A program made the position numbers and the translations under genes. From Streptomyces sp. V3I7 (GTDB lineage: Bacteria; Actinomycetota; Actinomycetes; Streptomycetales; Streptomycetaceae), in NCBI RefSeq assembly GCF_030817495.1, contig NZ_JAUSZK010000001.1:4567001-4631000 (forward strand): 64,000 bases of DNA. Reading direction: 5' to 3'. The notes under the pieces are model-generated. The model was not told the origin of the DNA and did not search any database. It saw nothing but the letters and a program-made list of their open reading frames with translations. Position 1 is the stretch's first letter. Every line of letters begins with the position of its first letter. Of the stretch, positions 7,717 to 18,479 are shown one piece after another.

Positions 7717-7976
7717 GCGGCGTCCGCCCCACCGTGTGTCTGCTGACGCCGGACCTTGTGGAGCTGGTCTCGCAGCGCCTGGATCTCCTCGTCCGTGACG
7801 GGACCGTGCTCGGCCTCGGCGACCTGGAGGAGTTCGTTGAGGTTGTCGCGTTCGATCTGGCGGGCCACTGCGGCGGCCACGTAAGCAGACAACCCCGAGG
7901 GCCCGCTCCGGGCCTTGGCGGCTTCGGCGATGTCGCGTGGCATAGTGATCGAGTACTTGCCGGTAGGCTCACTCAT
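7713..7976 (-). CDS. RHH/CopG-like antitoxin partner of the PIN toxin
   Basis: 87 aa. The N-terminal KYSITMPRDIAEAAKAR followed by a helix resembles the ribbon-helix-helix DNA-binding fold, and the acidic C-terminal helix could wrap the toxin. I chose the ATG at 7974-7976 because AGGA lies 8 nt upstream. An in-frame ATG at 7985 with a closer GAGGAG is possible. The last four bases overlap the toxin start, so the two are coupled. Autoregulation of the promoter by the complex is the family norm but was not tested here. Confidence 0.8.
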   Translation of the reverse strand: MSEPTGKYSITMPRDIAEAAKARSGPSGLSAYVAAAVARQIERDNLNELLQVAEAEHGPVTDEEIQALRDQLHKVRRQQTHGGADAA

Positions 7977-8113
7977 GCTACTCATCCTACTCCTCATCCT
8001 CTCCCTGTCGGTCGGAGTAGACCTGGCAGACGGATCGCCCTACGGCTCGCTTTGGCGAGGCCAAAGACGCCTCCGCGGGAAGTACCAGGGACGTCAGGGC
8101 GCTAGGAAGCACG

Positions 8114-8152
8114 AAAAAGGCGCTGATCTGCATTTCTGCATCTCAGCGCCTT
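8114..8152 (-). terminator. Displaced transcription terminator of tRNA-Arg
   Basis: Perfect 10-bp stem AAGGCGCTGA (8117-8126) with TCAGCGCCTT (8143-8152), followed on the minus strand by a five-T run. It lies directly beyond the decayed tRNA 3' end at attL, on the same strand and in the order expected for the original tRNA terminator. The integrated element now separates it from the functional tRNA by 9.6 kb. Confidence 0.8.
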
Positions 8153-8160
8153 GATCCGGA

Positions 8161-8208
8161 GTGCCCCGGCAGGATTCGAAACCTGCGCACACGGCTCCGG
8201 AGGCCGTT
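8161..8208 (-). other. attL: duplicated 3' half of tRNA-Arg(CCG)
   Basis: 48 bp matching the 3' half of the intact tRNA-Arg at 17739-17786. The inner 28 bp (8181-8208), from the T-stem through the anticodon loop and stem, are identical. The outer part has lost one C in the acceptor stem and gained one A beside the T-loop. This is the original chromosomal tRNA end, now free of selection. Confidence 0.92.
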
Positions 8209-8367
8209 CGGTGGTGCGGAGCGTAGCACGGGCCGTGACCGGCCCGAAGAGCAGAAGCAGCGGCCGTAGGCCGCTTGCGTAGGACAGCAAAGGCACACGG
8301 CCTCCGCGGCCGTGTGTGAGGGCTTTCGTTCGCTCCGATGGGTACGGGAACGTTGCGCGATAGAAGG

Positions 8368-8414
8368 CGTTTAAACACTTTTCCTTGTCGATTATTCAAG
8401 GGCCGTTTAAACAC
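8368..8414. promoter_or_regulatory. Two palindromic GTTTAAAC sites upstream of the first plus-strand element gene
   Basis: CGTTTAAACAC occurs at 8368-8378 and 8404-8414, 36 bp apart (centre to centre), each with a perfect GTTTAAAC palindrome in otherwise GC-rich DNA. They lie 50-100 bp before the ATG at 8467 and are plausible operators. The binder is unknown. Confidence 0.45.
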
Positions 8415-8466
8415 CTCTTGCAAGTCAACCTTGATTCCGCCACCCGGAACGAGTTACAACACTTCC

Positions 8467-8724
8467 ATGATCCTCGACATCACGACCAAAGCCGAAGCCG
8501 AGAGATTGCCCGCCTTCGAGGTGTGCGCCGAGCCTGAGGTAGGCGCGTACTACTTGTGGGCGGACTTCACGGATGAGGATCACACGTTCTTTGTGCGACC
8601 CGTGACCGTGGACGAATCGGGCTGTCTGGTCGATGTGTTCGGCATCCGTGACGGCGTCGTGAAGTACTTGGGCCGAGACAAGTTCATACGGGAAAGCGGC
8701 AGGCTTTGCCTCCTCGAAGAGTAG
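8467..8724 (+). CDS. Small protein of the integrated element, unknown function
   Basis: 85-aa acidic protein beginning MILDITTKAEAERLPAF, with no recognisable domain, signal or membrane segment. It looks like an alternating-strand fold (YYLWADF, TFFVRPVTV, CLVDVFGI). The ATG at 8467 is preferred over an in-frame upstream ATG because the upstream extension runs through the GTTTAAAC operator region. Shine-Dalgarno pairing is weak. A rho-independent terminator follows 26 nt after the stop, so it appears to be a single-gene transcript. Confidence 0.6.
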   Translation: MILDITTKAEAERLPAFEVCAEPEVGAYYLWADFTDEDHTFFVRPVTVDESGCLVDVFGIRDGVVKYLGRDKFIRESGRLCLLEE

Positions 8725-8750
8725 GCGTGACAGGAGAAGACCGCGCTACG

Positions 8751-8775
8751 GCCCCGGAAACTCCGGGGCTTTTTC
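8751..8775 (+). terminator. Rho-independent terminator
   Basis: Stem CCCCGGA / TCCGGGG with AAC loop, followed by CTTTTTC. It ends the transcript of the 85-aa gene. Confidence 0.85.
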
Positions 8776-8806
8776 TATGCCCGTGAACGATTGGAGGAAC
8801 TGTCCA

Positions 8807-9322
8807 ATGACCCAATTTGCCACCGAGACCGCCTATTCCACGGAAGCACAGTGGGATGCCGAGTACGAGCCGAGGGGGCACGCCACCTCGTCCCGTGGAC
8901 CGTGGTTTGGCCTGAGCCAGGATGCGGCGTTCGCCATGGCGCAGTGCGCGGCCTTGGCCACCGATGCTCGGCTTCTCGGCTACGCGGTGGCCCGCGCGGA
9001 CCGGTACGGCCACTCCGAGTACGGCCGAGGGGAACTAGTGCGGCTGATGGGGGTCGATGCCGCGAACGTACGGAGAGCGATAGCGAAGCTGAAGGCCGCG
9101 GGGGTCCTCGCGCCGGAAGCCGACGCACGTTGCCTTCTCATGGCCTACGAATTCCGAGGCGGCGGCAAGACGCCGAACGACCCGAAGCGATGCTCTCGCC
9201 ATGGTGTGACGGGTGCCGCTACCCGTGAGCTGGCAAGCGTGCCGTCTCTGCCGAAGCAGCGTGACGCTGCGCTGTTCGCACTGGATCTTTACCGGGGTAA
9301 CGACGATAAAGCGTGCGCCTGA
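8807..9322 (+). CDS. Winged-helix protein of the integrated element
   Basis: 171 aa. About residues 65-100 (GRGELVRLMGVDAANVRRAI followed by AKLKAAGVL) form a winged-helix DNA-binding motif like that of plasmid and phage replication or partition proteins that read out marker-by-marker helices. The rest is not recognised. The ATG at 8807 follows GGAGG by 9 nt. The in-frame ATG at 8777 lies in the preceding terminator. A replication-accessory or regulatory role is inferred. The hairpin array starts 75 bp after its stop. Confidence 0.65.
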   Translation: MTQFATETAYSTEAQWDAEYEPRGHATSSRGPWFGLSQDAAFAMAQCAALATDARLLGYAVARADRYGHSEYGRGELVRLMGVDAANVRRAIAKLKAAGVLAPEADARCLLMAYEFRGGGKTPNDPKRCSRHGVTGAATRELASVPSLPKQRDAALFALDLYRGNDDKACA

Positions 9323-9397
9323 CGCCCCGCACCAGTGCTCTGACCTGGGCAAACGCGGGTTTCCCTATAGAGCCTGGGCCCCGGAGGGAACAGTGCA

Positions 9398-9570
9398 GCC
9401 CTGGCCGAAGCCAGGGGCGATAGCAGTAGAGCCCTGGCCGAGTAAGGCCAGGAGCAACAGCAGTAAATCCCCTGGCCGATTGAGGCCAGGCTGAGAGCAC
9501 TACTACGGGCACCCCGTCGAGGGTGCCCTACCTATTTCCTATCTATGGGCGCCCCCTCGAAAGGGCGCCC
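9398..9570. repeat. Array of five hairpins, three in tandem, ahead of the HNH gene
   Basis: Three near-repeats of 33-37 bp start at about 9398, 9431 and 9468. Each contains a CCTGGCC-type hairpin (loops CGAA, GAGTAA and GATTGA) followed by a GCAGTA-like spacer. Two further perfect 8-bp-stem hairpins follow: GGGCACCC/GGGTGCCC at 9507-9528 and GGGCGCCC/GGGCGCCC at 9547-9570. The block fills the 264-bp gap between the winged-helix and HNH genes. It could be a packaging or cos-like site, a replication origin, or a structured RNA. The last hairpins may act as terminators. Confidence 0.8.
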
Positions 9571-9586
9571 TTCTTCTGGAGTATCT

Positions 9587-9913
9587 ATGGCTTATTTGAT
9601 GTGCAGCCGCTGTAAGCGGCTCTACTCCCTCGGCTCACGGTGTGAGCCGTGCACCTCGGCCGCAGCGAAGCGGCGGGAGCAGAAGAGACAGCACACGCGC
9701 CCTTCGCCCTGGGCGCGTGGTTACAACACTCAATATCGGAAGGCTAGGGCCGCGATCCTCGCGGCTAACCCTGTCTGCTCTATCTGCAATGCTCGGCCGG
9801 CCACCACGGCCGATCACATAGTTCCGCTCAGTCGAGGCGGAACGAATGACATTGAGAACCTTCGCCCGGCCTGCGGGCCGTGCAACTTCAGCCGAGGCAA
9901 CAGGACGGCCTAG
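9587..9913 (+). CDS. HNH endonuclease
   Basis: 108 aa. An N-terminal zinc ribbon (CSRCKRLYS ... CEPC) is followed by a basic linker and a C-terminal HNH domain with CSIC, ADHIVPLSRGGTNDIENLRP and CGPCNFSRGN. HNH proteins of this kind are encoded beside terminase genes in HK97-type phages and help cleave cos DNA during packaging. Here there is no terminase, so it may act with a helper's enzyme. The start ATG at 9587 follows GGAG by 6 nt. The upstream in-frame ATG lies in a hairpin. Confidence 0.92.
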   Translation: MAYLMCSRCKRLYSLGSRCEPCTSAAAKRREQKRQHTRPSPWARGYNTQYRKARAAILAANPVCSICNARPATTADHIVPLSRGGTNDIENLRPACGPCNFSRGNRTA

Positions 9914-9928
9914 GTGGCGCTCGCTAGT

Positions 9929-10636
9929 TCACTCGGTTCCAGTGGGTTCCGTGGAACCCAACTCGTCAATTGCACGCTGAATCGCTCGCTGTCGTTGGCG
10001 CTCTTGATTCAGATCTCTCCGAGTTTCTTTGAGGGTTTTGGACATCTCACGCAAAGCCTTGGCGGCGTCATGAACACCGTACTCGGTCATGGAGAGAAGG
10101 CTGTACCGGATCGAGAGATCGAGGATGTAGGTCAGGGGCTCTTGTGGTCTTCCATGAGCATCCTCGAATTCGACGGTGGCTGTGTATTTCATCGGCAGTC
10201 CGGCTTCACGCCGATCAGCCCCGACGTCAAAGAGTGCGGTGATGCGTTTGCGTGGAGGCAGTGACGGAATCCCTTGGGTGAGCAACGGTGTCGACTGTAG
10301 AGGATATCCATCGCTATCCAGGGTAGATGTCAAGGGCGGATCTATCTTGATCTTGACATTCTTGGCGAGGGTTTGCCCCATGTTCTCAATCACGAAGTCA
10401 AAGGCTTGACGCCATACCGGGTTGTCTTGGATGTCAACCACGACAAATGGCTGGGCTTGCTCTTCGCGCAGTTGCCGAGCCAGGGTCACCTGTTGGCGCG
10501 CGTAGAGCGCAGCCGCCAAGGCGATAGCCACGGTGAAGAGGGTCAGCAGAGCCGTAGCGACCGCCGAGGCGGCCGACCAATCTTCGGAGGTCCAGGCGCC
10601 GAAGTCGACTGCCAGCAGCATGGATTCGCTTGTCAT
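9929..10636 (-). CDS. Membrane-anchored protein with Ig-like domain and coiled-coil tail (element cargo)
   Basis: 235 aa. One strong membrane segment (about residues 25-48, ATALLTLFTVAIALAAALYA) is followed by a charged helix, a beta-rich domain with FVIENMGQTLAKNVKI, and a C-terminal Arg/Glu-rich helix likely to be a coiled coil. It is on the strand opposite the HNH and capsid genes and has its own transcription unit. This placement is typical of satellite and prophage cargo such as superinfection exclusion or anti-phage genes. I do not recognise the family by name and function is unknown. Confidence 0.7.
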   Translation of the reverse strand: MTSESMLLAVDFGAWTSEDWSAASAVATALLTLFTVAIALAAALYARQQVTLARQLREEQAQPFVVVDIQDNPVWRQAFDFVIENMGQTLAKNVKIKIDPPLTSTLDSDGYPLQSTPLLTQGIPSLPPRKRITALFDVGADRREAGLPMKYTATVEFEDAHGRPQEPLTYILDLSIRYSLLSMTEYGVHDAAKALREMSKTLKETRRDLNQERQRQRAIQRAIDELGSTEPTGTE

Positions 10637-10789
10637 GGGCGCAGGCTAGTGCATCGAAGCATGGGTAACGAGACGTTTGGCGTATCAGGGAAGCGGGGTT
10701 CCGCTCACAGACCCACGGCCAGGAGGAGGGGGATGGGAAAAGGATTCCGGGCTACATCCCCGCACCCGCCTCTTTCCCTCTTTTTGCGT

Positions 10790-10906
10790 GCCTGAGGACA
10801 TAGGACGGCGGTGGCAGCGGATGCGGACGTATCCGCACGTCAGAGCGCGTATTCGCATGCAATGCCTAGGGACATGCCTGAGGACATTCGGGGGACGGTT
10901 GTCCTC
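10790..10906. promoter_or_regulatory. Repeats upstream of the capsid-region genes
   Basis: A 12-mer GCCTGAGGACAT lies at 10790-10801 and 10876-10887, with a variant GCCTAGGGACAT directly abutting at 10864-10875. GAGGACA (10880-10886) pairs with TGTCCTC (10900-10906). A separate palindrome TGCGGA-CGTA-TCCGCA lies at 10822-10837. All are within 140 bp of the next plus-strand start, so this may be an operator region for the structural genes. Confidence 0.45.
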
Positions 10907-10929
10907 AACCATTCGATAGGAGATCAACA

Positions 10930-11298
10930 GTGAAGCGATGCCCGTATTGTCGTACCCGCACCTTGGAGCGGGCCCGGAATGGGAACGTTAAGGCGACCTG
11001 CGGGCAGCCTGATTGTTTGAAGGCCCGAGCGCGGGAGCGCAAGCGTGCGGTGCGCGCTAAGGCCGCTGGGCAGGCCCCTGCGGGGCTGGTGGACCCCGCC
11101 CCGTCTATGGAGGAGGCTGAGGGCGCGTTTATGGCGCCTTGGGGGCAGGTGTACGCCTCGGAGGTCGAGGCGTGGGCCGACTGCCTGTTGACGGGTGGCC
11201 TAGAAGGTTTGGGCAATGTCTTGCCCGAGGAGCAGTACGAGCGACAGCGGATGTTGGCCGGCGGCAGTGATGGCACGTTCGGCGGTCTACTCGGCTAA
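10930..11298 (+). CDS. Small zinc-ribbon protein upstream of capsid
   Basis: 122 aa. CPYC near the N-terminus and C-x4-C (CGQPDC) about 20 residues later suggest a zinc ribbon, followed by a strongly basic stretch (KARARERKRAVRAKAAG) and an acidic C-terminus. The GTG start is supported by AGGAG 8 nt upstream. It opens the plus-strand block that ends in the major capsid gene, so a role in assembly, packaging or late regulation is possible but unproven. Confidence 0.7.
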   Translation: MKRCPYCRTRTLERARNGNVKATCGQPDCLKARARERKRAVRAKAAGQAPAGLVDPAPSMEEAEGAFMAPWGQVYASEVEAWADCLLTGGLEGLGNVLPEEQYERQRMLAGGSDGTFGGLLG

Positions 11299-11521
11299 CG
11301 GCCGAGGTGATCGGCATCACCCATAGTTTTGTGGTGGGTTTCGCAACCTAACCCGTCTATAGATTATGAAACTTCGGGTGATCGAGGTTGGGTAGGGCAC
11401 TGGGCGGTGCGACCGGAGCGGCTCGGTTTCATGGCATTTCCAATGCTGGCCATGGATCGGGCCGCTTCGTGTTTTCCGTACCGGACGCTCTCGCCCCATC
11501 GTCATTCGAAGGAGGTGAGAC

Positions 11522-11707
11522 ATGGATAGCACGGTCGCTCTGACGTGCTGGACGTGTGAGCGTGAGTTTGCCACGGAGTACCGGACAGGCAGACCGCGCC
11601 GATATTGCTCTGATGATTGTCGAGCACTAGCGCACAAGATTCGTCGCAGAGTGCGCTACGCGGAACAAGCCGAGCTTCGGCGCCTGGCTCATGTCGTTCC
11701 GTTCTGA
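11522..11707 (+). CDS. 61-aa zinc-finger protein
   Basis: CWTC and CSDDC form a short Cys4-type zinc site, followed by a basic helix (RALAHKIRRRVRYAEQAELR). It has an unusually complete Shine-Dalgarno AAGGAGGTGA 4 nt before the ATG, suggesting high translation. Its end overlaps the next gene by 17 nt. Similar small Cys-rich proteins accompany HNH genes in actinobacteriophages. Function unknown. Confidence 0.7.
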   Translation: MDSTVALTCWTCEREFATEYRTGRPRRYCSDDCRALAHKIRRRVRYAEQAELRRLAHVVPF

Positions 11708-11909
11708 GCGTGAAGCCTATCGGCGCGAATCGCCAGGGCCGATCAATTACGGCTTCTTCCTGAACATCTCCTGGTTCTACTCGACCGAGGAGATAGGAGA
11801 GCTGATTAGTAGATGGCAGGAGAAAGTCGAAGCCTGCACAAATGAAACGGCGCGGGCTGAATGGCTCGACCGTATAAAAAAGCTTCGCGCGTTCCTGCGC
11901 GAACAGTAA
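11691..11909 (+). CDS. 72-aa protein before the capsid gene
   Basis: Acidic and helical, with no known domain (FFLNISWFYSTEEIGELISR then a Glu/Lys-rich helix). It overlaps the preceding zinc-finger gene, has no clear ribosome-binding site of its own, and is probably translated by coupling. It is followed by a strong terminator before the capsid gene. It could be a scaffold or regulatory helper. Confidence rests on frame continuity and context. Confidence 0.55.
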   Translation: MSFRSEREAYRRESPGPINYGFFLNISWFYSTEEIGELISRWQEKVEACTNETARAEWLDRIKKLRAFLREQ

Positions 11910-11924
11910 CCGCCTGAGTCTATG

Positions 11925-11958
11925 CCGCCCCACCCATTCGGGTGTTGGGCGGTTTTTT
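11925..11958 (+). terminator. Rho-independent terminator before the capsid gene
   Basis: Stem CCGCCC-CACCC / GGGTG-TT-GGGCGG with ATTC loop, then TTTTTT. It lies between the 72-aa gene and the capsid gene, so capsid expression needs read-through, antitermination, or a promoter in the 40 bp that follow. Confidence 0.88.
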
Positions 11959-11997
11959 CATGGCCGCTACCCGGCCCCAATCCGAAGAAGGTTCTTA

Positions 11998-13173
11998 ATG
12001 TCTATTCAGGACACTTACAAGAAGCAGGCGAACGCCGCTCTTGAGGAGCGTGCGAAGCTGGTTACCGAGCTTCGCTCTATCGAGGCCGATTCGAGGCTCT
12101 CTGCCGTTGAGAAGCGTGAGCGTGTCGAGCGCATCGACAAGGACCTTCACCGCCTGGAGGCCGAGGCCCGAGACGCTGTTGAGCGTGGCGAGCGCGAGGC
12201 GGAGGTTCGCACCCTGGCAGAGCGCGCGGGCATGGCGTCCGCCCTCACTGGTAGTTCGGCACTGCTTGGCGATCGCGAGGACGAGTGGCGCACGCTTATG
12301 CCGTCTCTCGGCGAATATCGCGCTCTGATCTCCGAGTCTGTTCCCGTGGATGGTGGATATACCGTTCCTCAGGAGATCTCCGGCAAGTACATCGATGCTC
12401 TGAAGGCCAAGTCCACTTTCCTGCGCGGCCTGCCGGCCGACAGTATCATTCCTTTCACTTCGGCTACTCTCTCCGTTCCGCAGCTTGTTTCCTCCACGGG
12501 TGCTGACTATGCCGCCGAGGGGCAGCAGATCCCCGAGGGGCAGATGGTTTGGGGTGAGGTCAAGTTTGATGCGAAGAAGATCGGCGAAATTCAGTGGGCT
12601 TCGACTGAGGTGCTGGAGGATTCCGCGCTTGATCAGCGGCGGGTGATCGCCGAGAACCTTCTTCGCGACGCTTCCCTCAAGTTCGATGCCGACGCTTTCA
12701 CTGGCTCGGGTGCGAACCCGATCAAGGGCATCGTGTCTCAGGGCACGTCTACGACCCTCGGCACCGGAAAGGTCACGGTCACGTATGACGACCTGGCCGA
12801 CGCCGTGGCCCGTATCGAGGCCACGAACGGAACTCCCTCGGTTGTGTGGGCTTCTATCGACATGGCTGCGGCTCTGCGTAAGGAGAAGGCTGCGGGGTCG
12901 GGCATTTACCAGGGCGGTTCCCCGACGGATTCCCCGGCTTCCACGGCTTGGGGCCTGCCGATCCTTCCTAGCGCGTTCCTTCCCGCTAAGACTGTCGTCG
13001 TTGCCGACGGCTCCCGCATCGTGGTCGGTATCCGTCGCAATGCCACGGTGAAGGTGAGCGAGGATGCGCGGTTTGATTCCGATCAGGTCGGCTTCAAGCT
13101 GACCATGCGCATGGCTGGCGTTTCTCTGGCCGAGGCCACTTCGGCTCAGGTCATCAAGGCTGCCGCCAGTTAG
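11998..13173 (+). CDS. HK97-family phage major capsid protein
   Basis: 391 aa. The first 95 residues are a charged helical region, like the HK97 delta (scaffold) domain. The capsid fold follows from about residue 105, with the family signatures SVPVDGGYTVPQEISGKYID, a WGEVKFDAKKIGEI-type strand, an ASTEVLEDSALD helix, and AFTGSGANPIKGI. The length is typical of the family. No maturation protease or portal is encoded nearby, so delta-domain removal and DNA entry would depend on a helper. Codon use favours T-ending codons, unlike the host genes, indicating foreign origin. GAAGAAGG precedes the ATG. Confidence 0.95.
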   Translation: MSIQDTYKKQANAALEERAKLVTELRSIEADSRLSAVEKRERVERIDKDLHRLEAEARDAVERGEREAEVRTLAERAGMASALTGSSALLGDREDEWRTLMPSLGEYRALISESVPVDGGYTVPQEISGKYIDALKAKSTFLRGLPADSIIPFTSATLSVPQLVSSTGADYAAEGQQIPEGQMVWGEVKFDAKKIGEIQWASTEVLEDSALDQRRVIAENLLRDASLKFDADAFTGSGANPIKGIVSQGTSTTLGTGKVTVTYDDLADAVARIEATNGTPSVVWASIDMAAALRKEKAAGSGIYQGGSPTDSPASTAWGLPILPSAFLPAKTVVVADGSRIVVGIRRNATVKVSEDARFDSDQVGFKLTMRMAGVSLAEATSAQVIKAAAS

Positions 13174-13297
13174 TTTTTTTCGGCCCAGTCAAGAAACCGT
13201 TCAGCGCGTCGAGGACGCGCCGACCCGTGACGCGCTGCTGTCCCCGTCCTCGTCCCCAACCCATGTGGGCCTGGCGGGCGAAGGCTAGGAGCAACGA

Positions 13298-13339
13298 CCC
13301 CCCGCACCCTTCTGGGTGGCGGGGGGCTTTCGTCGTTTT
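13298..13339 (+). terminator. Capsid terminator with shared tail
   Basis: Stem of CCCCCCGCACCC with GGGTGGCGGGGGG (small bulge) and TTCT loop, followed by CTTTCGTCGTTTT. The T-rich tail reaches the stop of the convergent membrane-protein gene. The same 16-nt GGGCTTTCGTCGTTTT tail recurs at 14320. Confidence 0.8.
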
Positions 13340-14130
13340 CAGCGCCAACCAACCCGGGGTCCTTTATAGCCGATGCGTACAAGCTGGTCATTGATCGTCT
13401 TGCAGCCATCTACCTGCTCGGTCTGAATATGCACACCAAACAATTCGCAGCTCATATTTTTCGAATCCAGGAACTCGGGCCCCAGGAATACAAGGACCGA
13501 GCCGATAGTGAGCCCCGCGGCAGGGACCCCGAGAAGGAAAGCCGCGAATAGGCGGAAGTTCGGGCGACGCCACACCGGGAACAGTCCGTCCCGGCTGTCA
13601 ATTGGATCCACTGGCGTTTCCAAGAGATGAGCGCTCGCGCATTCGACGTCATGTTTCCCTCCATCGACCAGGACAAGAAATTCGGCCGATTGGCCAGTCT
13701 TGAATAGGCCCTTGTTCACCGCAACCTTGTTGCCGGTGATCGTTGTTCGGGGAGCTGGTGCCGAAGTGGGGTTAGCCTGAACCGAGAGCACCGAGACCAC
13801 GGGTGTCTTGAAGTCGAAGACAAGTGAATCGTCTCCGCTGGTAAAATCCTGCTCTCGGACATCGCGTTTGCCCGTATTCTTGAGGATGAGGGTCACCAAG
13901 CGGGGCCGCGCGATTGAGGCTCCATCATAGTTGACATCGAACGAGTGTGAATGCGTGTTGGGGTCCAGCAGTGGGGAGTTTGATGCCTCAATCCACAAGA
14001 GATGCCGCCTTGGCTTGGCGGCGTAAAGCGTACCCCAAACTGCAAGACCTCCGAATAGTGCCGCCACTAGGACGGTGATTACGGTATTCCAGAAGTCGTT
14101 TGACCCAATGTAGCTTTCGGCGGTGATCAT
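13339..14130 (-). CDS. Two-span membrane protein with Ig-like insert (element cargo)
   Basis: 263 aa. A membrane segment near the N-terminus (about residues 14-38) and a second one near 200-222 flank a beta-rich domain that includes RLVTLILKNTGKRDV. It is on the strand opposite the capsid gene, like the 235-aa membrane protein, and the NxG strand motif in each suggests related architecture. The ATG at 14128-14130 is chosen because an upstream extension would be Cys/Arg-rich shadow sequence. A phage-exclusion or envelope-associated cargo role is inferred from position only. Confidence 0.68.
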   Translation of the reverse strand: MITAESYIGSNDFWNTVITVLVAALFGGLAVWGTLYAAKPRRHLLWIEASNSPLLDPNTHSHSFDVNYDGASIARPRLVTLILKNTGKRDVREQDFTSGDDSLVFDFKTPVVSVLSVQANPTSAPAPRTTITGNKVAVNKGLFKTGQSAEFLVLVDGGKHDVECASAHLLETPVDPIDSRDGLFPVWRRPNFRLFAAFLLGVPAAGLTIGSVLVFLGPEFLDSKNMSCELFGVHIQTEQVDGCKTINDQLVRIGYKGPRVGWR

Positions 14131-14294
14131 CCTGTACCCCGGGCTCCTCTCCCCACAGACAGCGCGTAGGCATGCCAGGGGTGCCCGCACCTCGCACTCC
14201 TGTGCATCCCTCGAAGTCACACGAACACGGCCAGGGCCGGACAGCCTAGAGCCTCCGACGGCCTTGCGGCCATCCGGTCACGCTCGACATGACA

Positions 14295-14336
14295 AGCCCC
14301 CTGCACCGTCGGGTGCAGGGGGCTTTCGTCGTTTTG
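14295..14336 (+). terminator. Hairpin with the same tail as the capsid terminator
   Basis: 13-bp perfect stem AGCCCCCTGCACC / GGTGCAGGGGGCT, GTCG loop, then TTCGTCGTTTT. It sits between the GntR-type gene and the 263-aa membrane gene. The T-run is on the plus strand, so it would stop transcripts running from the capsid side toward the repressor. Confidence 0.75.
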
Positions 14337-14371
14337 CAGGGCGTTTGCGGCCCTCAGCAGGCAACTGCCCT

Positions 14372-14635
14372 CTACTGCCCTTCGGGCTGGTCCTGTGAGT
14401 CGGCGATGAACGTTCCCTTGGCGGGCAGCGTGACGGCGAGGCCGCGTTCCCGCAATTCCTGAACCGCTCTCCGTGCTGTGCCAATGGCTACGCCGTACTG
14501 CTCAGCCAAGGCTCGCTCCCCTGGCAGGCGAGCCCCAGGGTGAAGCTTCCCCGAGGCCACCTCGGCAGCGATGTGGTCAGCGACCTGCCGGTAGACGTAC
14601 TCGGCGGCTTCCGGATCGATGGGCGTGTCTGCCAT
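14372..14635 (-). CDS. GntR-type winged-helix repressor (DNA-binding domain only)
   Basis: 87 aa. A classic GntR N-terminal domain: VYRQVADHIAAEVASGKLHP, GARLPGERALAEQYGVAIG and TARRAVQELRERGL. The C-terminal effector-binding domain of full-length GntR proteins (about 150 residues more) is absent. Such short GntR proteins control transfer and lysogeny functions in Streptomyces integrative elements. It is divergent from the 72-aa gene. The 128-bp gap between them contains five helically phased 10-bp repeats that are its likely operator. Confidence 0.88.
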   Translation of the reverse strand: MADTPIDPEAAEYVYRQVADHIAAEVASGKLHPGARLPGERALAEQYGVAIGTARRAVQELRERGLAVTLPAKGTFIADSQDQPEGQ

Positions 14636-14678
14636 GGCTCGAAGCTAGGTCGGTACACAGCTGCGTGCAGCTTGCGGT

Positions 14679-14728
14679 AGCGGCATAGAGCGGCATGTAG
14701 CGGTGCGGAGCAGCCTGTAGCAGTATGG
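14679..14728. promoter_or_regulatory. Phased 10-bp operator array
   Basis: AGC recurs exactly every 10 bp at 14679, 14689, 14699, 14709 and 14719. The units are AGCGGCATAG, AGCGGCATGT, AGCGGTGCGG, AGCAGCCTGT and AGCAGTATGG. The spacing puts all copies on roughly one helix face, between the GntR-type repressor and the divergent small gene. Cooperative repressor binding is inferred. Confidence 0.7.
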
Positions 14729-14763
14729 GCTAGTCACGTTGGAGAGGGCCAAGGAGAGGCCGC

Positions 14764-14982
14764 ATGCCTGCCGAGAAAATGGACTCCGCAACCGCCGCTA
14801 CCTATGACCAGGGCCTCGCCGTGGCCGTACGGCTGAAGCGTGCGCTCGACGCGCACGGCATCACCCTTCCTTCCCTGGCCGGCACTTGGCCCGTTCACGG
14901 AATGGCGATGGTCGAGCTCGGGGGATGCCGGGCCGAGGTGGCCGAGGCCCTGGCCGTCATCCTCGAAGAGGCCGGGCAGTGA
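14764..14982 (+). CDS. 72-aa small protein of the element
   Basis: Helical acidic protein starting MPAEKMDSATAATYDQG. It resembles the small conserved proteins of Streptomyces integrative elements and phages but is not assignable to a domain. AAGGAG lies 9 nt before the ATG. It is under the divergent promoter with the 10-bp operator array and overlaps the next gene by GTGA, so the two are co-translated. Confidence 0.68.
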   Translation: MPAEKMDSATAATYDQGLAVAVRLKRALDAHGITLPSLAGTWPVHGMAMVELGGCRAEVAEALAVILEEAGQ

Positions 14983-15170
14983 GGCTCTTCGCTGGCCAGC
15001 TCGTATACGACCCCATAGAAGGCCGGAACGGCCACATCATCCCGAGCGGCGGCCACGATGAAGTCCACCCCGCCCGAGTGTGCGTATGGCTCGAACCTGA
15101 GGGCGGCGGGCTCGAATGGTTGGCCGATACAGACGATCTTGAACCGCCCCGAGGGGGCACCGCGGCCTAG
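14979..15170 (+). CDS. 63-aa small protein of the element
   Basis: GTG start overlapping the previous stop. The sequence MRLFAGQLVYDPIEGRNGHI with later ARVCVWLEPEGGGLEWLADT suggests a compact all-beta (SH3-like) fold. It is followed by a GC-rich hairpin at 15191-15218. No function is known to me. A DNA-mimic or excision-factor role cannot be excluded. Confidence 0.65.
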   Translation: MRLFAGQLVYDPIEGRNGHIIPSGGHDEVHPARVCVWLEPEGGGLEWLADTDDLEPPRGGTAA

Positions 15171-15190
15171 GTCTCCGCAGAGACGACGGC

Positions 15191-15218
15191 AGCCCCCGCA
15201 CGCCTTCGGTGCGGGGCT
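15191..15218 (+). terminator. GC-rich hairpin after the two-gene unit
   Basis: AGCCCCCGCAC pairs with GTGCGGGGCT (one bulged C), loop GCCTTCG-like. No T-run follows, so termination strength is doubtful. Confidence 0.5.
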
Positions 15219-15272
15219 CGTCTGGCCTGTAGGACAGGGCGTGTAAACGCTCTGTCGGGCGGTATTACTGCG

Positions 15273-15464
15273 TCACACGCGGCGCGTGTGACCAGTCGCC
15301 GCAACGGTCGTTCCGGGCTTGAGCTTGAGCCAGGCGGCATACAGGTCGAGGGCGCGGGCAACGGCTTCGGTCGTGGTCTCCGCGTTCGTCACACGCATGA
15401 TGTCGGACAGGGCGGCATCGATCATGGGCGTCCTACGGACCGACAGGGAACGGCTCACAGTCAC
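15273..15464 (-). CDS. Putative ribbon-helix-helix protein
   Basis: 63 aa. SVRRTPMIDAALSDIMRVTN followed by AETTTEAVARALDLYAAWL has the strand-helix-helix spacing of small RHH regulators. The GTG at 15462-15464 is very close to an AAGGAG site. An in-frame GTG six bases downstream is better spaced, so the mature protein may lack two residues. It is the last gene of the leftward integrase/replication block. It may regulate excision or replication. Confidence 0.55.
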   Translation of the reverse strand: MTVSRSLSVRRTPMIDAALSDIMRVTNAETTTEAVARALDLYAAWLKLKPGTTVAATGHTRRV

Positions 15465-15517
15465 AACTCTCCTTGCAGGATGGGCGTTCGGGGTTTCGGG
15501 GCCTGTCAGACCGAGTT

Positions 15518-16402
15518 CTAGGAAGCCGCGAGGAAGGTGGCGGCATGGTTCAGCTCGTCTTGGCAGGAGCGGCAGACGCCGCCCTGGTGGCCGAGACGGA
15601 ACGGGGCCTCACAGACTTCGCACTGGGCCCGCTCAACGGGCCGAGAGGGCGCCTGAGCGGCGGCCTGGGCGGTCCTCTCCGGGGTGAAGTTCTTCAGCCG
15701 GTGAGTGATCAGGCCGGGGACAGAGCTGACGTGCTCGGGGAGGTTCTGCGTGAGGCACTGAAGGATGTCTTCGCTGCGGTAGTCCTCGCGCAGCCAAGGG
15801 ACGACCCTCGGGGCTAGGCGGCCTATCTCCTGATCCGAGAGAGGCAAGCTCTTGTGCAGGCTCAGCCGCTCAAGGATGCGACGGCCCTCACGGGCCATCT
15901 CGCGGCCGATCTTGTGCAGGAAGGCAGTCTCTCCATTCCCGCCCTGCTCGGGGGTCTCAGGAGCGAGCGGAGCGGCTTCCTGAGCCTGGACGGGGGTAGG
16001 GGTGGTGTCTTTCTTGCTCTCCGTCTTTTCTCCCTTGGGAGAGCCGCCGACAGCCCGACCAGTCGTCTCACCGACCGTCGCCATGTGGTTAGTCGGGGAA
16101 GTCTCGGACTCCGGGGTGTCGGAAACGGTCGTGACAGTCACCCATCGACCGGTCTCCGGGTCCTGGAGCTTGGCGCGCTTGACGTAGCCAACCTCGACCA
16201 GCTCGTTCATGGCCTTGGAGACAGAGCGCCGGCCGTTGGGGACCTGGGCGCAGATCTTCTCGACGGTGGCCCCGGTGCCGTCGGGCAGGGAGAGGAGCCT
16301 CACCAGCAAGCCGACGGCTTCGAGGGAGAGGCGCCCGTGCCGCGCGATGACATTGGGGATCTGAACGTACGCGGAGCTGTGCTTAGTACGCTGTACCTGC
16401 AT
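15518..16402 (-). CDS. Replication-initiator-like HTH protein with C-terminal zinc finger
   Basis: 294 aa. The N-terminal 85 residues (YVQIPNVIARHGRLSLEAVG ... GATVEKICAQVPNGRRSVSK) form a helix-turn-helix domain like that of plasmid and phage replication initiators. A Pro/Thr-rich linker of about 50 residues follows, then a helical segment and a C-terminal CEVC ... CRSC zinc finger. AAGAGG lies 9 nt upstream of the ATG. It lies directly downstream of the integrase on the same strand. A role in element replication is inferred from the domain and position. Confidence 0.7.
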   Translation of the reverse strand: MQVQRTKHSSAYVQIPNVIARHGRLSLEAVGLLVRLLSLPDGTGATVEKICAQVPNGRRSVSKAMNELVEVGYVKRAKLQDPETGRWVTVTTVSDTPESETSPTNHMATVGETTGRAVGGSPKGEKTESKKDTTPTPVQAQEAAPLAPETPEQGGNGETAFLHKIGREMAREGRRILERLSLHKSLPLSDQEIGRLAPRVVPWLREDYRSEDILQCLTQNLPEHVSSVPGLITHRLKNFTPERTAQAAAQAPSRPVERAQCEVCEAPFRLGHQGGVCRSCQDELNHAATFLAAS

Positions 16403-16428
16403 CGAAGACTGAACCTCTTCGGTGTCAG

Positions 16429-16470
16429 ACCCCGGAGTGTTGGTAGCACTGCCGGGGTCACTCTTTTTTG
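16429..16470 (+). terminator. Hairpin with T-run between integrase and replication gene
   Basis: GACCCCGG-AGTG pairs with CACT-G-CCGGGGTC (loop TTGGTAG), followed on the plus strand by CTCTTTTTT. It would stop plus-strand (antisense) transcription before it enters the integrase gene. On the minus strand it forms a leader hairpin upstream of the replication gene. Confidence 0.65.
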
Positions 16471-16517
16471 GGGGAAGGGCAGTTGCGGCCAGGTGCCGCC
16501 ATTGCGGACTGCTGCTG

Positions 16518-17588
16518 TCAGTACCGGTCGCCGAGGCGGCGAACGGCCGTCACGGCGCGATCAGAGGCCATGTCGGCGCCGTACCGGCGCAACATGCTCC
16601 GGTCCTTCCAGCCGCCGACTTCCATCACGTCCTCGGGGGAGACTCCCGCGGATAGCAGATCGTGAGTCCAGGTGTGGCGGTGCATGTGGGGCGCTACGTG
16701 CCCGTACCCGGCCTGTTCGGCGCGACGGTTGATCACGCGGTAGAGCCCGCTGTACTTCAGGCGTCCTCGGCCACGGGTGCCGAGCCAGAGCCACCCGCCC
16801 CCGGCGTGGCGGTGTCCTTCACGGGCTCGGAGGTAGCGGCGTAGGGCCATTACGGTCTTCGGCTGCAACGGCACGATGCGGCCCGCACGGGATGCGCGTG
16901 CACCCTTGACCGGGGGAACCTGCAACAGCCCCTCTTCGAGGTGCAGGCTGTCCACGGTGAGCCTCAGCAGCTCATCCGCTCGAAGTCCCTCAGTGAGAAC
17001 GCGAATGATTGCGTGATCGCGGGTCCGCTCGAAGTCACGCACTCGGGGGCTGCCGCCCCCGGTCGCCTTCAGTACGTCCTCGATGAACTCGGCACTGAGC
17101 GTCTTCGGCGCCGCGTCCTGCGGGACGCTGTAACGCTGCAACCTCTTGTCGTCCCACGGGTGCGGGTACTCGTACTCCTCGGCGAGCCAGGTGAAGAGGT
17201 GCCGAAGGTTGCGCTGCTTCGTGTTCGTGCCACCCGTGAAGCTCTCATGCTGCTTCTGGTCGTGCGTGCGCTGGTACCAGCGGAAGAAGCGGTTCAGGGT
17301 GTCGACATCGCACGCGGTGAAGTCAGCGCAGATGCGCTCTTTCGTCATCCAGTGATGCAGCGCAATCGCAGCGTCTTTGTACGCGCCGATGGTGCGCGGA
17401 GCGTACGGGCGGCCGTTCCTGTTGGTCTTCGTTCGAAGCGCGTCGGCGAACTCAGCGATCATCGATTCCCGCTCTGCGACAGCAGTAGCGGTCTTGCTCT
17501 TCGGTGCGCTGGTGGTGGGGGAGCGGTCGGGCTTGCTACCCGCCGCTCGGAGCGGGCTCTTCCGAGTCCTCTCGGCACTGCTCGGCAT
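16518..17588 (-). CDS. int: Tyrosine integrase of the element
   Basis: 356-aa site-specific recombinase. The SAM-like N-terminal domain spans about residues 35-140 and the catalytic domain about 165-350. Active-site residues are visible: Arg in TEGLRADELL, a Lys-containing beta-hairpin around GLLQVPPVKG, HMHRHTW (His-x-x-Arg-like box), GGWKDRSM and the nucleophile Tyr in LRRYGAD. It sits 150 bp from the tRNA it targets, reading away from it, as in other tRNA-targeting elements. The intervening DNA has inverted repeats that may be arm sites. No recognisable excisionase is adjacent. Confidence 0.95.
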   Translation of the reverse strand: MPSSAERTRKSPLRAAGSKPDRSPTTSAPKSKTATAVAERESMIAEFADALRTKTNRNGRPYAPRTIGAYKDAAIALHHWMTKERICADFTACDVDTLNRFFRWYQRTHDQKQHESFTGGTNTKQRNLRHLFTWLAEEYEYPHPWDDKRLQRYSVPQDAAPKTLSAEFIEDVLKATGGGSPRVRDFERTRDHAIIRVLTEGLRADELLRLTVDSLHLEEGLLQVPPVKGARASRAGRIVPLQPKTVMALRRYLRAREGHRHAGGGWLWLGTRGRGRLKYSGLYRVINRRAEQAGYGHVAPHMHRHTWTHDLLSAGVSPEDVMEVGGWKDRSMLRRYGADMASDRAVTAVRRLGDRY

Positions 17589-17648
17589 CCATGGCTCCTG
17601 GGGAGTCTGGAGCTAGGCGAGCTGCGCCGGCGAGCGTCTTCTAGGCAA

Positions 17649-17708
17649 CAAGAAAGCCGCTTGGCAGTTCGCCTAGCACTCTGGCTAGGGCTACCAAACG
17701 GCTTCTTG
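17649..17708. repeat. Inverted repeat between integrase and tRNA
   Basis: CAAGAAAGCCG-C-TTGG (17649-17664) pairs with CCAA-A-CGGCTTCTTG (17694-17708), enclosing CCTAGC/GCTAGG repeats. On the minus strand it follows the tRNA and may replace its displaced terminator. It may also hold integrase arm-binding sites. Confidence 0.55.
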
Positions 17709-17738
17709 AAGCACATTTTCGCAGGTCACTGCGGTTCT

Positions 17739-17786
17739 GTGCCCCCGGCAGGATTCGAACCTGCGCACACGGCTCCGGAGGCCGTT
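17739..17786 (-). other. attR within tRNA-Arg(CCG)
   Basis: Right-hand copy of the attachment repeat, here part of the intact tRNA gene. Identity with attL is exact over 17759-17786. Confidence 0.9.
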
Positions 17787-17811
17787 GCTCTATCCCCTGA
17801 GCTACGGGGGC
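17740..17811 (-). tRNA. tRNA-Arg(CCG)
   Basis: 72-nt cloverleaf without encoded CCA. Acceptor GCCCCCG pairs with CGGGGGC plus discriminator A, D-arm GCTC/GAGC, anticodon stem ACGGC/GCCGT with loop CTCCGGA (anticodon CCG), and T-arm GCAGG/CCTGC with TTCGAAT. The gene is intact. The integrated element supplies everything beyond its 3' end. Confidence 0.97.
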
Positions 17812-17963
17812 GTGTCGATTGTGGAGCTGACTGCTCGCGGCGACGGGTAGAACACTACCAGCTCCGGTGGGGTGTTCAGGAACGGGTTTTGGGGCGGGGG
17901 CGGGGTGGGTCCCTCGCGCGGGTGGAAGTGGGGAAAAGCCGGACGCGGTGGCCCGTGCGGACC

Positions 17964-17976
17964 TACTCTCGAGTTG
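17964..17976 (+). promoter_or_regulatory. Putative -10 box of a leaderless response-regulator transcript
   Basis: TACTCT at 17964-17969 lies 6 nt before the GTG start, and there is no Shine-Dalgarno sequence. That spacing predicts transcription starting at the GTG itself. The -35 is not clear. Confidence 0.45.
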
Positions 17977-18479
17977 TGTCGGGCGCGTCGGGTCGGGTGC
18001 TTGTTGTCGACGACAACAAGGTCATCCGGCAGCTGATCAGGGTCAATCTCGAGCTGGAGGGTCTCGAGGTGGTGACCGCGGCTGATGGTGCCGAGTGTCT
18101 TGAGATCGTTCACCATGTGCGGCCCGACGCCGTGACTCTCGACGTCGTCATGCCTCGGCTGGACGGGATCGGTACCGCCGCCCGGCTCCGTGCCGACCGG
18201 CGCACTCGTGATCTTCCTCTCGCCATCGTCAGCGCCTGTACGCAGCACGAGATCGAGAGCGGCCTCGACGTCGGGATCGACGCCTTCCTCGCCAAGCCCT
18301 TCGACCCCGCCGAGCTCGTACGCGTCGTACGGCAGCTCCTCGAGTGCGGAAGGGACAGGCGGAGTGGGGACGGAGGCGGTGACGGTGACGGTGACGGCAG
18401 CGTCCTCGACATCGACGGTGCGTCGGGCCTTGCCGCAGAGCGGAGCGGGCACACCGAGCGCGCCGCCGGGCCCGCCTGA
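17976..18479 (+). CDS. Receiver-only response regulator
   Basis: 167 aa. A CheY-like receiver domain (residues 7-125): acidic pair in VLVVDDNK, phospho-acceptor Asp56 in VTLDVVMP, and conserved Lys in AFLAKPFD. There is no DNA-binding output domain. Instead there is a 40-residue Gly/Asp-rich tail (GDGGGDGDGDG). No histidine kinase is adjacent. A predicted leaderless GTG start fits the promoter. It stands upstream of the ArgS-like gene in the conserved block. Output is unknown, probably protein-protein. Confidence 0.88.
   Translation: MSGASGRVLVVDDNKVIRQLIRVNLELEGLEVVTAADGAECLEIVHHVRPDAVTLDVVMPRLDGIGTAARLRADRRTRDLPLAIVSACTQHEIESGLDVGIDAFLAKPFDPAELVRVVRQLLECGRDRRSGDGGGDGDGDGSVLDIDGASGLAAERSGHTERAAGPA

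What the first reader, a model, noticed from the sequence alone, without database searches (positions are those of the whole stretch)
8161..17786. Minimal capsid-encoding integrative element (candidate phage satellite) in tRNA-Arg(CCG)
Seen: exact 28-bp att repeats, integrase, replication-type HTH protein, GntR-type repressor, HNH nuclease and an HK97-type major capsid gene, but no portal, large terminase, protease, tail or lysis genes in 9.6 kb. Established: capsid-forming PICIs and mycobacterial phiRv1/phiRv2 carry partial morphogenesis sets. Inference: it makes its own (perhaps smaller) capsid shell and borrows portal, packaging motor and tails from a helper phage. One capsid plus one HNH gene with no packaging motor is unusually minimal.
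Basis: partly seen in the sequence, partly recalled or inferred. Interest (0 to 1): 0.88.

Follow-up and report, generated by a model that had tools for sequence, protein, structure and literature searches.

The report
Capsid-carrying phage satellite in Streptomyces
A 9.6-kb piece of mobile DNA in a Streptomyces chromosome looks like a parasite of a bacterial virus: it carries its own virus-shell protein and a likely DNA packaging signal, but lacks the motor, entry ring, protease and tail, which it probably takes from a group of viruses whose shell-assembly domain and packaging signal it resembles.

Summary
A 9,578-bp element sits in tRNA-Arg(CCG), with 28-bp exact att repeats; two relatives have the unoccupied site. 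It encodes an intact HK97-type capsid protein but no large terminase, portal, protease or tail gene was found. It is not a prophage remnant: it belongs to a recurrent family (about 8-10 kb where ends are known) in Streptomyces and kin whose capsid shells form one clade apart from phage capsids, under purifying selection. Two related metagenomic contigs look circular.

Two results point to a helper lineage of actinophages (contigs of 39-44 kb, order HNH-TerS-TerL-portal-protease-capsid). The capsid's scaffold (delta) domain is up to 80% identical to theirs while the shell is about 25%. A profile of their HNH-TerS intergenic site, a candidate cos, finds one site in 13 of 15 satellite loci, including window 10725-10791. 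The right half of that site is phage-like in 9 satellites without own TerS/E and at chance level in 4 that have one.

Closest analogue: Ccm of SaPIbov5. Verdict: new variant of a known kind. Own versus mixed shell, and the helper, remain inferred.

The parts
8161..8208 (.). attL: partial copy of the 3' half of tRNA-Arg(CCG)
   Evidence: direct repeat with 17739-17786, last 28 bp exact; unoccupied sites in L085 and L086
17739..17811 (-). intact tRNA-Arg(CCG), containing attR (17739-17786)
   Evidence: ARAGORN
8467..8724 (+). protein A, 85 aa, function unknown
   Evidence: homologs in L037 (1.3e-6) and L139 (5.8e-38)
8807..9322 (+). protein B, 171 aa, weak winged-helix match
   Evidence: MarR_2 0.0019, below the cut-off; homologs in L035, L036, L037 and L139
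9433..9490 (.). two hairpins CCTGGCC-N-GGCCAGG upstream of HNH, function unknown
   Evidence: exact pattern in 7 of 14 satellite loci: WIN, L003, L035, L036, L037, L139, L142
9590..9913 (+). HNH endonuclease (earlier in-frame start at 9545)
   Evidence: PF01844 3.3e-11; 39-45% identical to the HNH upstream of TerS in the six best phage matches
9929..10621 (-). protein D, hydrophobic N-terminus by eye, probable cargo, function unknown
   Evidence: no Pfam or PADLOC hit; about 70% identical in L003 and L037, dN/dS about 0.1 in the two of three pairs where dS could be estimated
10725..10791 (+). candidate cos (cohesive-end packaging) site; core TCCCCGCACCCGC at 10757-10769
   Evidence: profile built from 5 phage HNH-TerS gaps: E 2.7e-9, 35.2 bits; best in 20 block-shuffles 13.7 bits; left half 28/36 to phages
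10790..10906 (.). candidate E-specific recognition repeats: GAGGACA at 10794 and 10880, inverted copy at 10900
   Evidence: same repeats with the same spacing in L161, the other satellite locus with E; function inferred
10930..11298 (+). protein E, 122 aa, Cys-rich, in the TerS slot; its last ~10 residues (SDGTFGGLLG) resemble the C-terminus of satellite TerS
   Evidence: 44-bp DNA match 11264-11307 to the 3' end of terS in L037, 86%; E homologs P0122-P0128 and the E of L161 lack this tail
11522..11707 (+). protein F, 61 aa, Cys-rich (weak zf-FCS), just upstream of the capsid gene
   Evidence: homologs just upstream of the capsid gene in L002, L003, L035, L036, L037, L038
11691..11909 (+). protein G, 72 aa, function unknown
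   Evidence: homologs in L038 and L050
11998..13173 (+). HK97-type major capsid protein, 391 aa
   Evidence: PF05065 1.6e-34, phrog_10 2.9e-42, TIGR01554 6e-44; model pLDDT 80, HK97 fold
11998..12237 (+). delta (scaffold) domain of the capsid protein, residues 1-80, phage-like
   Evidence: up to 80% amino acid identity to phage-type delta, 81-83% DNA identity over about 205 bp in the 14 best rows; shell about 25%
13339..14130 (-). protein I, hydrophobic stretches by eye, probable cargo, function unknown
   Evidence: no Pfam or PADLOC hit; homolog in L039
14372..14635 (-). GntR-type HTH, probable regulator
   Evidence: PF00392 4e-16
15273..15425 (-). protein M, 50 aa, very weak VapB-like match
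   Evidence: VapB match E 0.058, below the cut-off; homologs in L039, L137 and L139
15518..16402 (-). replication-type HTH protein, 294 aa
   Evidence: phrog_4707 replication initiation protein 1.9e-12; homologs in L137 and L139
16518..17588 (-). tyrosine integrase, 356 aa
   Evidence: PF00589 2.1e-21; homolog in L051 at the same tRNA, 6e-150

Best explanation
An integrative phage satellite with its own HK97-type capsid protein. Shown: site-specific insertion in tRNA-Arg; intact capsid gene in a satellite-only shell clade under purifying selection; no TerL, portal, protease or tail gene found; a site shared with phages that looks like cos; a capsid delta domain shared with one actinophage lineage. 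Inferred: when a phage of that lineage (HNH-TerS-TerL-portal-protease-capsid) grows in the cell, the element excises and replicates; its capsid protein joins helper procapsid assembly through the helper-like delta domain, nucleating on the helper portal and being cleaved by the helper protease, to give a satellite-sized shell (alone or mixed with helper capsid protein); helper TerL, with HNH and either helper TerS or the element's own TerS/E, cuts the shared cos core and packages the element; helper tails finish the particle. In the window element, E in the TerS slot plus an altered right half of the site would let packaging prefer its own DNA.
For: Unoccupied sites, and a second genus at the same tRNA. 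TerL/portal/protease queries: none in 15 satellite loci, one or more in 47 of 50 related IMG/VR loci; 53 further satellite proteins match no family annotated as head, packaging or tail among the 25 of 26 PHROG families shown; no PF04860 in 6 of 7 satellite-host genomes (the exception, G000, only in a separate prophage) and no PF03354 in 7 of 7. Shell clade: 9 of 9 satellites against 13 of 13 phages and 3 others, 100/100 (after leaving out 9 of 65 rows). dN/dS 0.14-0.25 for the 9 capsid pairs of at least 60% identity (dS 0.9-2.4). Delta: best phage-type match at least 55% in 39 of 46 delta-1 satellites, while 0 of 46 has a phage-type shell match of 30%; within the phage-type set delta (median 78%) is less conserved than shell (85%), so slow delta evolution does not explain it. 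Candidate cos: one hit each in 13 of 15 satellite loci. TerS/E carriers 4 of 4 have a right half at chance level (15-16/32) against 9 of 9 non-carriers at 19-28/32. Circular-looking contigs L139, L142.
Against: No induction, particle or helper has been seen. The element's own genome holds no phage of the proposed lineage by capsid search. Some copies are decayed: the capsid gene is broken or partial in L005, L039, L040 and L161, HNH is broken in L003 and L035. 31 of 77 satellite capsids have another delta (delta-2) with no phage match found in phage records, IMG/VR or 392 genomes, so helper matching is unsupported for them; 7 of 46 delta-1 satellites have no good phage delta match. On the 80-column delta-only tree one clade of satellites is not rejected (p-AU 0.095) and starred branches alone do not force any mixing. 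The cos call rests on sequence and position only; the profile does not hit the ends of Gordonia phage Kita, nor the Streptomyces prophage L162 of the same general type, and is weak in L116, L127 and L128. E homologs other than the window's lack the TerS tail. P27-type TerS was found in only 1 of 10 satellite-host genomes. L051 and L040 lack the site. The right-half split (4 against 9) was noticed after looking, not predicted.
Confidence: 0.75

Rival explanations
1. Ccm-like saboteur (a sub-version of the satellite reading): the capsid protein does not build the shell by itself but inserts into helper capsids, redirecting their size and blocking the helper; the shell divergence reflects this specialised role.
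For: SaPIbov5 Ccm is a lone HK97-fold capsid homolog with 19% identity to the helper capsid protein, occupies pentamers and needs helper capsid protein. Here too the shell is diverged and there is no portal or protease; a shared delta would favour co-assembly.
Against: The shell domain is intact and has its own clade under purifying selection; nothing in the sequence says pentamer-only.
Confidence: 0.4
2. Decayed prophage remnant in which the capsid gene survives by chance.
For: Decayed copies exist (capsid in L005, L039, L040, L161; HNH in L003, L035); HNH, TerS and capsid are related to a phage head module.
Against: Similar compact order in many genomes with different integrases and sites; satellite-only shell clade; purifying selection; candidate cos kept in 13 of 15 loci; circular-looking contigs.
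Confidence: 0.07
3. A capsid-type defence island: the capsid protein poisons helper assembly and the element is kept by the host for immunity, without being packaged.
For: Ccm cuts helper titre strongly; cargo-like proteins D and I.
Against: A kept packaging-type site and the covariation of TerS/E with its right half point to packaging of its own DNA; among the 10 proteins scanned against PADLOC only the HNH gave matches, generic ones.
Confidence: 0.1
4. Actinomycete integrative conjugative element (pSAM2-like) that picked up a capsid gene.
For: tRNA insertion, tyrosine integrase, GntR regulator and a replication-type gene resemble such elements (recalled).
Against: No FtsK/Tra-type translocase or Spd family reached significance in the window proteins scanned; one FtsK-like PHROG match of protein G is at E 0.034 over 37 residues.
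Confidence: 0.02

Closest known systems
cos-type SaPIs with Ccm (SaPIbov5, helper phi12)
   Same: Integrative satellite whose only capsid-type gene is a lone HK97-fold homolog; needs a cos helper (PMC8569155 and PMC5052747: passages; one section).
   Different: Sequence kinship was not tested. In SaPIbov5 the delta parts of Ccm and helper differ in length (87 against 128 residues); here the delta domain is the part that matches phages and the shell is what differs. The Streptomyces elements carry HNH and, in some, TerS or E.
Candidate PICIs of Mycobacterium (integrase plus major capsid gene; phiRv1/phiRv2-like)
   Same: Actinobacterial, tyrosine integrase at tRNA or serine integrase elsewhere, capsid gene; proposed satellites (PMC10654092: passages and one section).
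   Different: Different host group; some of those carry other virion genes such as terminase or scaffold; capsid kinship not tested here.
MulchRoom/MiniFlayer satellites of Streptomyces phages
   Same: Streptomyces satellites with capsid and HNH genes, MulchRoom also a tyrosine integrase and a GntR-type HTH (PMC10690885: outline and results part 1).
   Different: They encode both terminases, portal, scaffold and head-tail adapter, are 14.8-17.4 kb, and use presumed virulent helpers of 130-134 kb.
Capsid-forming PICIs (cfPICI)
   Same: Own capsid (PMC11389934: passages).
   Different: By recall these carry a near-complete packaging and head set; here portal, TerL and protease were not found.
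Actinophage lineage on contigs of 39-44 kb (IMG/VR loci L105, L107, L113 and others; more distant Streptomyces prophage L162)
   Same: HNH-TerS gap with the candidate cos in most; HNH 39-45% and TerS 46-49% identical to satellite genes in the six best rows each; delta domain up to 80%.
   Different: They have TerL, portal and protease (for L105); shell about 25% identical.

Membership tests
Phage satellite (general) | Integrates at a specific site with its own integrase | tested here: met
   att repeats, integrase, unoccupied sites; excision itself not shown for the window element
Phage satellite (general) | Lacks a complete set of virion genes, and the family recurs in that state | tested here: met
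   0 of 15 satellite loci with phage-type TerL, portal or protease; 53 proteins scanned
Phage satellite (general) | Induced and mobilised by a helper phage | not testable with these tools
   no experiment; helper lineage only inferred
cos-type SaPI with Ccm | Lone capsid homolog of HK97 fold | tested here: met
cos-type SaPI with Ccm | Carries the helper's cos site | tested here: inconclusive
   phage-type HNH-TerS site in 13 of 15 loci; physical ends not known
cos-type SaPI with Ccm | SaPI regulatory and replication module (Stl, primase; recalled) | tested here: not met
   GntR and Rep-type HTH instead; no primase family in the window proteins scanned
Capsid-forming PICI | Own portal, TerL and protease with the capsid gene (recalled) | tested here: not met
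MulchRoom-type Streptomyces satellite | Own terminases, portal, scaffold and capsid | tested here: not met
Mycobacterium candidate PICI | Integrase plus major capsid gene in a non-prophage region (the paper's own working definition) | tested here: met
   same working type, no kinship claimed
Defective prophage | Same genes found in a complete prophage of close relatives, or disrupted reading frames | tested here: not met
   not seen in complete prophages; window capsid frame intact; disrupted copies exist in L005, L039, L040, L161
Actinomycete integrative conjugative element | FtsK-type conjugal translocase (recalled) | tested here: not met
   none in the window proteins scanned

The most novel reading that the evidence does not exclude
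Satellite capsid proteins of this family are two-part keys: a scaffold (delta) domain exchanged with a helper phage lineage and fitted to the helper's portal, protease and assembly path, joined to a private shell domain; and the packaging site is likewise split into a helper-type cutting half kept by nearly all and a recognition half replaced whenever the element has its own TerS or the unrelated Cys-rich protein E, which would be a new kind of small-terminase substitute.
Probability: 0.4. Interest if true: 0.82.

Novelty: new variant of a known kind. Interest (0 to 1): 0.64.

Why it matters
If true, sequence alone would name the helper of a satellite: the delta domain and the left half of the candidate cos site point to one phage lineage, which makes helper dependence in Streptomyces directly testable. 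It also offers a natural experiment on what the HK97-type delta domain does (partner recognition as against shell geometry), and a candidate replacement for the small terminase. In the library held, searches for Streptomyces satellites with capsids and for delta-domain recombination in satellites listed no paper whose title or shown abstract start describes this family or pattern; other literature was not searched.

Tried and rejected
Rejected: decayed prophage, conjugative element and complete cfPICI (see rivals and membership test). Considered and dropped: the resident prophage-like region of the same genome (portal at 3.67 Mb) as helper: the window capsid search finds no second match in that genome, so nothing links it; its other genes were called but not scanned. 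Since that region has a portal but G000 gave no hit to PF03354 or PF20441, these two TerL profiles probably miss some terminases; the phage-specific queries are the better test. Prediction that delta-2 satellites match another phage lineage: tested in phage records, IMG/VR and 392 genomes; only satellites, a decayed satellite (L161) and one weak match in another context (L138) were found, so it is unconfirmed. L137, met as an 84% delta-2 match on a 56-kb IMG/VR contig, turned out to be another satellite. The delta domain of the window gives no match in 50,697 phage records; its phage relatives are in IMG/VR and genomes. The ends of the Kita record lie between HNH and TerS, but the cos profile does not hit them, so this is positional support only, and whether the record's ends are the physical ends was not checked. 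The structure of E is poor (pLDDT 68.5, pTM 0.33) and was not searched. Capsid pairs under 60% identity were left out of the dN/dS statement. In the first capsid tree (65 rows) three outgroup rows with long branches fell inside the satellite side; the tree quoted leaves out 9 rows (L041, L042, L046, P0055, P0062, P0064, P0070, P0072, P0077). Counts use proteins of 375-470 residues and include some proteins twice, once as a locus and once as a P id. IMG/VR scans with P0062 and P0040 gave only L137 and nothing.
Full report
WHAT IS THERE. The element lies between a partial and a full copy of the 3' half of tRNA-Arg(CCG): 8161-8208 and 17739-17786, of which the last 28 bp are exact. Its G+C (58-67% in 1-kb windows) is below that of the flanks (67-76%). 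In two relatives the flanks are contiguous with one repeat copy (L085: window 8114-8206 and 17739-18307 map to 6077-6170 and 6125-6681; L086 likewise), so the inserted unit is 9,578 bp. In another genus (L051) a homologous integrase (6e-150) and the same repeat pair enclose about 8.35 kb at the same tRNA beside argS. The genus is Streptomyces by inference: the genome counted as same genus, G547, has a contig of the same length (376,076) as NZ_JNXE01000005.1, Streptomyces sp. NRRL F-525, and its locus L049 was taken to be L003 again.

GENES. Integrase, replication-type HTH, GntR regulator, HNH and an HK97-type capsid protein are confirmed. The model of the capsid protein (pLDDT 80) has the HK97 fold with a long helical N-terminal part (residues 3-80); the best solved matches are HK97 and other phage capsids. 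No TerL, portal, protease, tail or lysis family was found among the window proteins scanned. D and I have hydrophobic stretches (by eye) and no Pfam or defence match.

A FAMILY. A capsid search found relatives, satellite- and phage-type together, in 53 of 392 genus genomes at E 0.001 (7 of them at 1e-25 or better, the window's own genome included), in 5 of 394 family genomes at 1e-25 (two of these five were also), and 132 proteins at 1e-20 in the large protein set, 120 listed. Satellite-type neighbourhoods were read in L002, L003, L005, L035-L040, L050, L051, L137, L139, L142 and L161. Parts of the order A-B-HNH-D-[TerS or E]-F-capsid recur with different integration modules: tyrosine integrase in the window and L051 (and, read by eye and not scanned, L137); a large serine recombinase in L003, L035-L040, L050, L139, L142 and L161, often splitting a gene that I read by eye as LysE-type, and often followed by an XRE-DUF5753/DUF6879/small-protein trio. 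L139 (9,126 bp) and L142 (8,946 bp) are metagenomic viral contigs with identical 127-bp ends; in L139 the recombinase frame runs across the junction. That fits a circular or head-to-tail form; tandem copies are not excluded.

NOT A REMNANT. Queries of TerL, portal and protease from phage L105 match none of 15 satellite loci (the whole window among them), and one or more of the three match 47 of 50 related IMG/VR loci (all three plus capsid in 32 of 50; the three without any, L125, L131 and L132, are contigs of 4.7-6.2 kb). Genome-wide, PF04860 (portal) and PF03354 (TerL) were absent from the satellite hosts G104, G373, G234, G188, G164 and G119; G000 has a portal only in a separate region. PF20441 gave no hit over the cut-off in 10 genomes. 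These TerL profiles probably miss some terminases, as that portal-bearing region of G000 shows. Fifty-three other satellite proteins matched 26 PHROG families, of which the 25 shown hold none annotated as head, packaging or tail. The 9 satellite capsids of known context form one side of a branch against 13 phage capsids and 3 others, 100/100 (9 of the 65 rows left out because of long branches). Capsid dN/dS is 0.14-0.25 in the six pairs among WIN, L002, L003, L035 and 0.15-0.25 in the three among L036, L037, L038, with dS 0.9-2.4. Against this, copies with broken or partial capsid genes exist (L005, L039, L040, L161), and HNH is broken in L003 and L035.

A CHIMERIC CAPSID PROTEIN. The window capsid protein is 80% identical to the phage-type protein P0082 in residues 1-80 and 25% in residues 121-391; the change is sharp near residues 71-80. 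P0082's own context was not read; against L092 and L098, which have TerL, portal and protease, the delta domain is 81-82% identical over residues 7-78 or 18-78. Of 77 satellite-type capsids aligned (labelled by their shell; no conflict at the 22 rows of known context), 46 have this delta-1 domain: median delta identity to the 52 phage-type rows 60% (among themselves 54%), median shell identity 24% (among themselves 49%). In 39 of 46 the best phage-type delta is at least 55%; in 0 of 46 is the best phage-type shell 30%. Within the phage-type rows delta (median 78%) is less conserved than shell (85%), so slow evolution of delta is not the cause. At DNA level the window delta matches phage loci at up to 83% over 205 bp, while the shell matches only the two satellite contigs L139 and L142 in that set. 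The other 31 satellites have delta-2, unlike any phage delta in the set (best 36%), and delta and shell reassort: window and L035 share shell (69%) but not delta (29%), window and L036 share delta (68%) more than shell (40%). The delta-only tree (39 satellites, 26 phages, 80 columns) mixes the two groups (7 changes; 5-8 in bootstraps), but starred branches alone force no mixing and one satellite clade is not rejected (p-AU 0.095), so the direction and number of exchanges are open.

A SHARED PACKAGING-TYPE SITE. In the phages the order is HNH-TerS-TerL-portal-protease-capsid (families confirmed for L105). A conserved block lies in the HNH-TerS gap. A profile built from 5 phage copies, out of 13 phage loci looked at, finds one site in each of 13 of 15 satellite loci (E 1.5e-16 to 6.6e-6; 24.3 bits or more; best score in 20 block-shuffles of the same loci 13.7), including window 10725-10791; the two misses are L040, whose capsid gene is cut, and L051. 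In 12 further phage loci it finds 8 above the inclusion threshold; L127 and L128 (E about 0.05) and L116 (0.6) are weaker and L162 has none. The position, between HNH and TerS, is also where the record of Gordonia phage Kita, with a related TerS (37% over 67%), starts and ends, but the profile itself does not hit Kita. I call it a candidate cos.

TerS, E AND THE RIGHT HALF. L037 and L142 carry a P27-type TerS (for L037 phrog_83 1.3e-29 and TIGR01558 1.3e-19). The window and L161 carry E instead. In the window, a 44-bp stretch over the end of E (11264-11307) matches the 3' end of terS in L037 at 86%, giving E the same type of C-terminus; other E proteins lack it, so this may be a scar or a working TerL-binding tail. 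The left half of the site is phage-like in all 13 (23-35 of 36; random stretches of the element reach 23 in 0.1%). The right half is phage-like in the 9 satellites without TerS or E (19-28 of 32; random 1.5% reach 19) and at chance level in the 4 that have one (15-16; 84% of random stretches are at or below 16). The right halves of the window and L161 are alike and carry the same three GAGGACA-type repeats at equal spacing. This fits own recognition proteins with own recognition sites; it is 4 against 9 loci, seen after the fact, and needs a larger survey.

MECHANISM. Shown: insertion, family, no motor, portal, protease or tail gene found, delta sharing, and the shared site. Inferred: helper lineage, co-assembly through delta, cutting at the site, the TerS-like role of E, shell size. 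Ccm of SaPIbov5 gives the precedent that a lone capsid homolog can redirect helper capsids while still needing helper capsid protein (PMC8569155 and PMC5052747: passages and one section). Which of own shell or mixed shell holds cannot be told from sequence.

NOVELTY. Capsid-bearing satellites are known in Staphylococcus, in Streptomyces (MulchRoom, MiniFlayer, with fuller head modules; PMC10690885, outline and part of the results) and as candidates in Mycobacterium (PMC10654092, passages and one section). A survey of actinobacterial prophages supposes that a good part of the elements under 15 kb are satellites (PMC10023795, passages). No paper describing the family here, its chimeric capsid protein or the split site was seen among the listings.

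Noticed in passing
window 7303-7997: PIN-like gene (just below the Pfam cut-off) with a small upstream gene, toxin-antitoxin-like in arrangement, just outside attL; similar DNA (up to 85%) lies in several relatives, so it may be mobile in its own right.
   Followed up: partly
L047 and L048 (Terrisporobacter plasmids, 8,218 and 9,281 bp): Small plasmids with a lone phage capsid gene (in L047 also a scaffold-like gene and a VapE-type helicase): possible plasmid-borne capsid satellites.
   Followed up: partly
G000 contig 1, 3,650,000-3,689,800 (L052, L053): A portal-bearing prophage-like region in the same genome; genes called but, apart from the portal, not scanned.
   Followed up: partly
31 satellite capsids with the delta-2 domain, e.g. 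L035, L037, L038: Second scaffold domain with no phage counterpart found; its source is unknown.
   Followed up: partly
window 9433-9490: Hairpins CCTGGCC-N-GGCCAGG upstream of HNH, exact pattern in 7 of 14 satellite loci; other GC-rich hairpins lie upstream of HNH in the phages printed.
   Followed up: partly
window 14676-14730: Repeated AGCGG-type units between the GntR gene and the divergent small gene, possibly operator sites.
   Followed up: no
L003, L037, L039, L040: Serine-recombinase satellites lie between two pieces of a gene that reads by eye as LysE-type, a recurrent insertion site.
   Followed up: no
L161 (G209) 9708-16215: Satellite whose capsid gene ends soon after the delta domain, followed by an ORF of 1,794 codons.
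   Followed up: no
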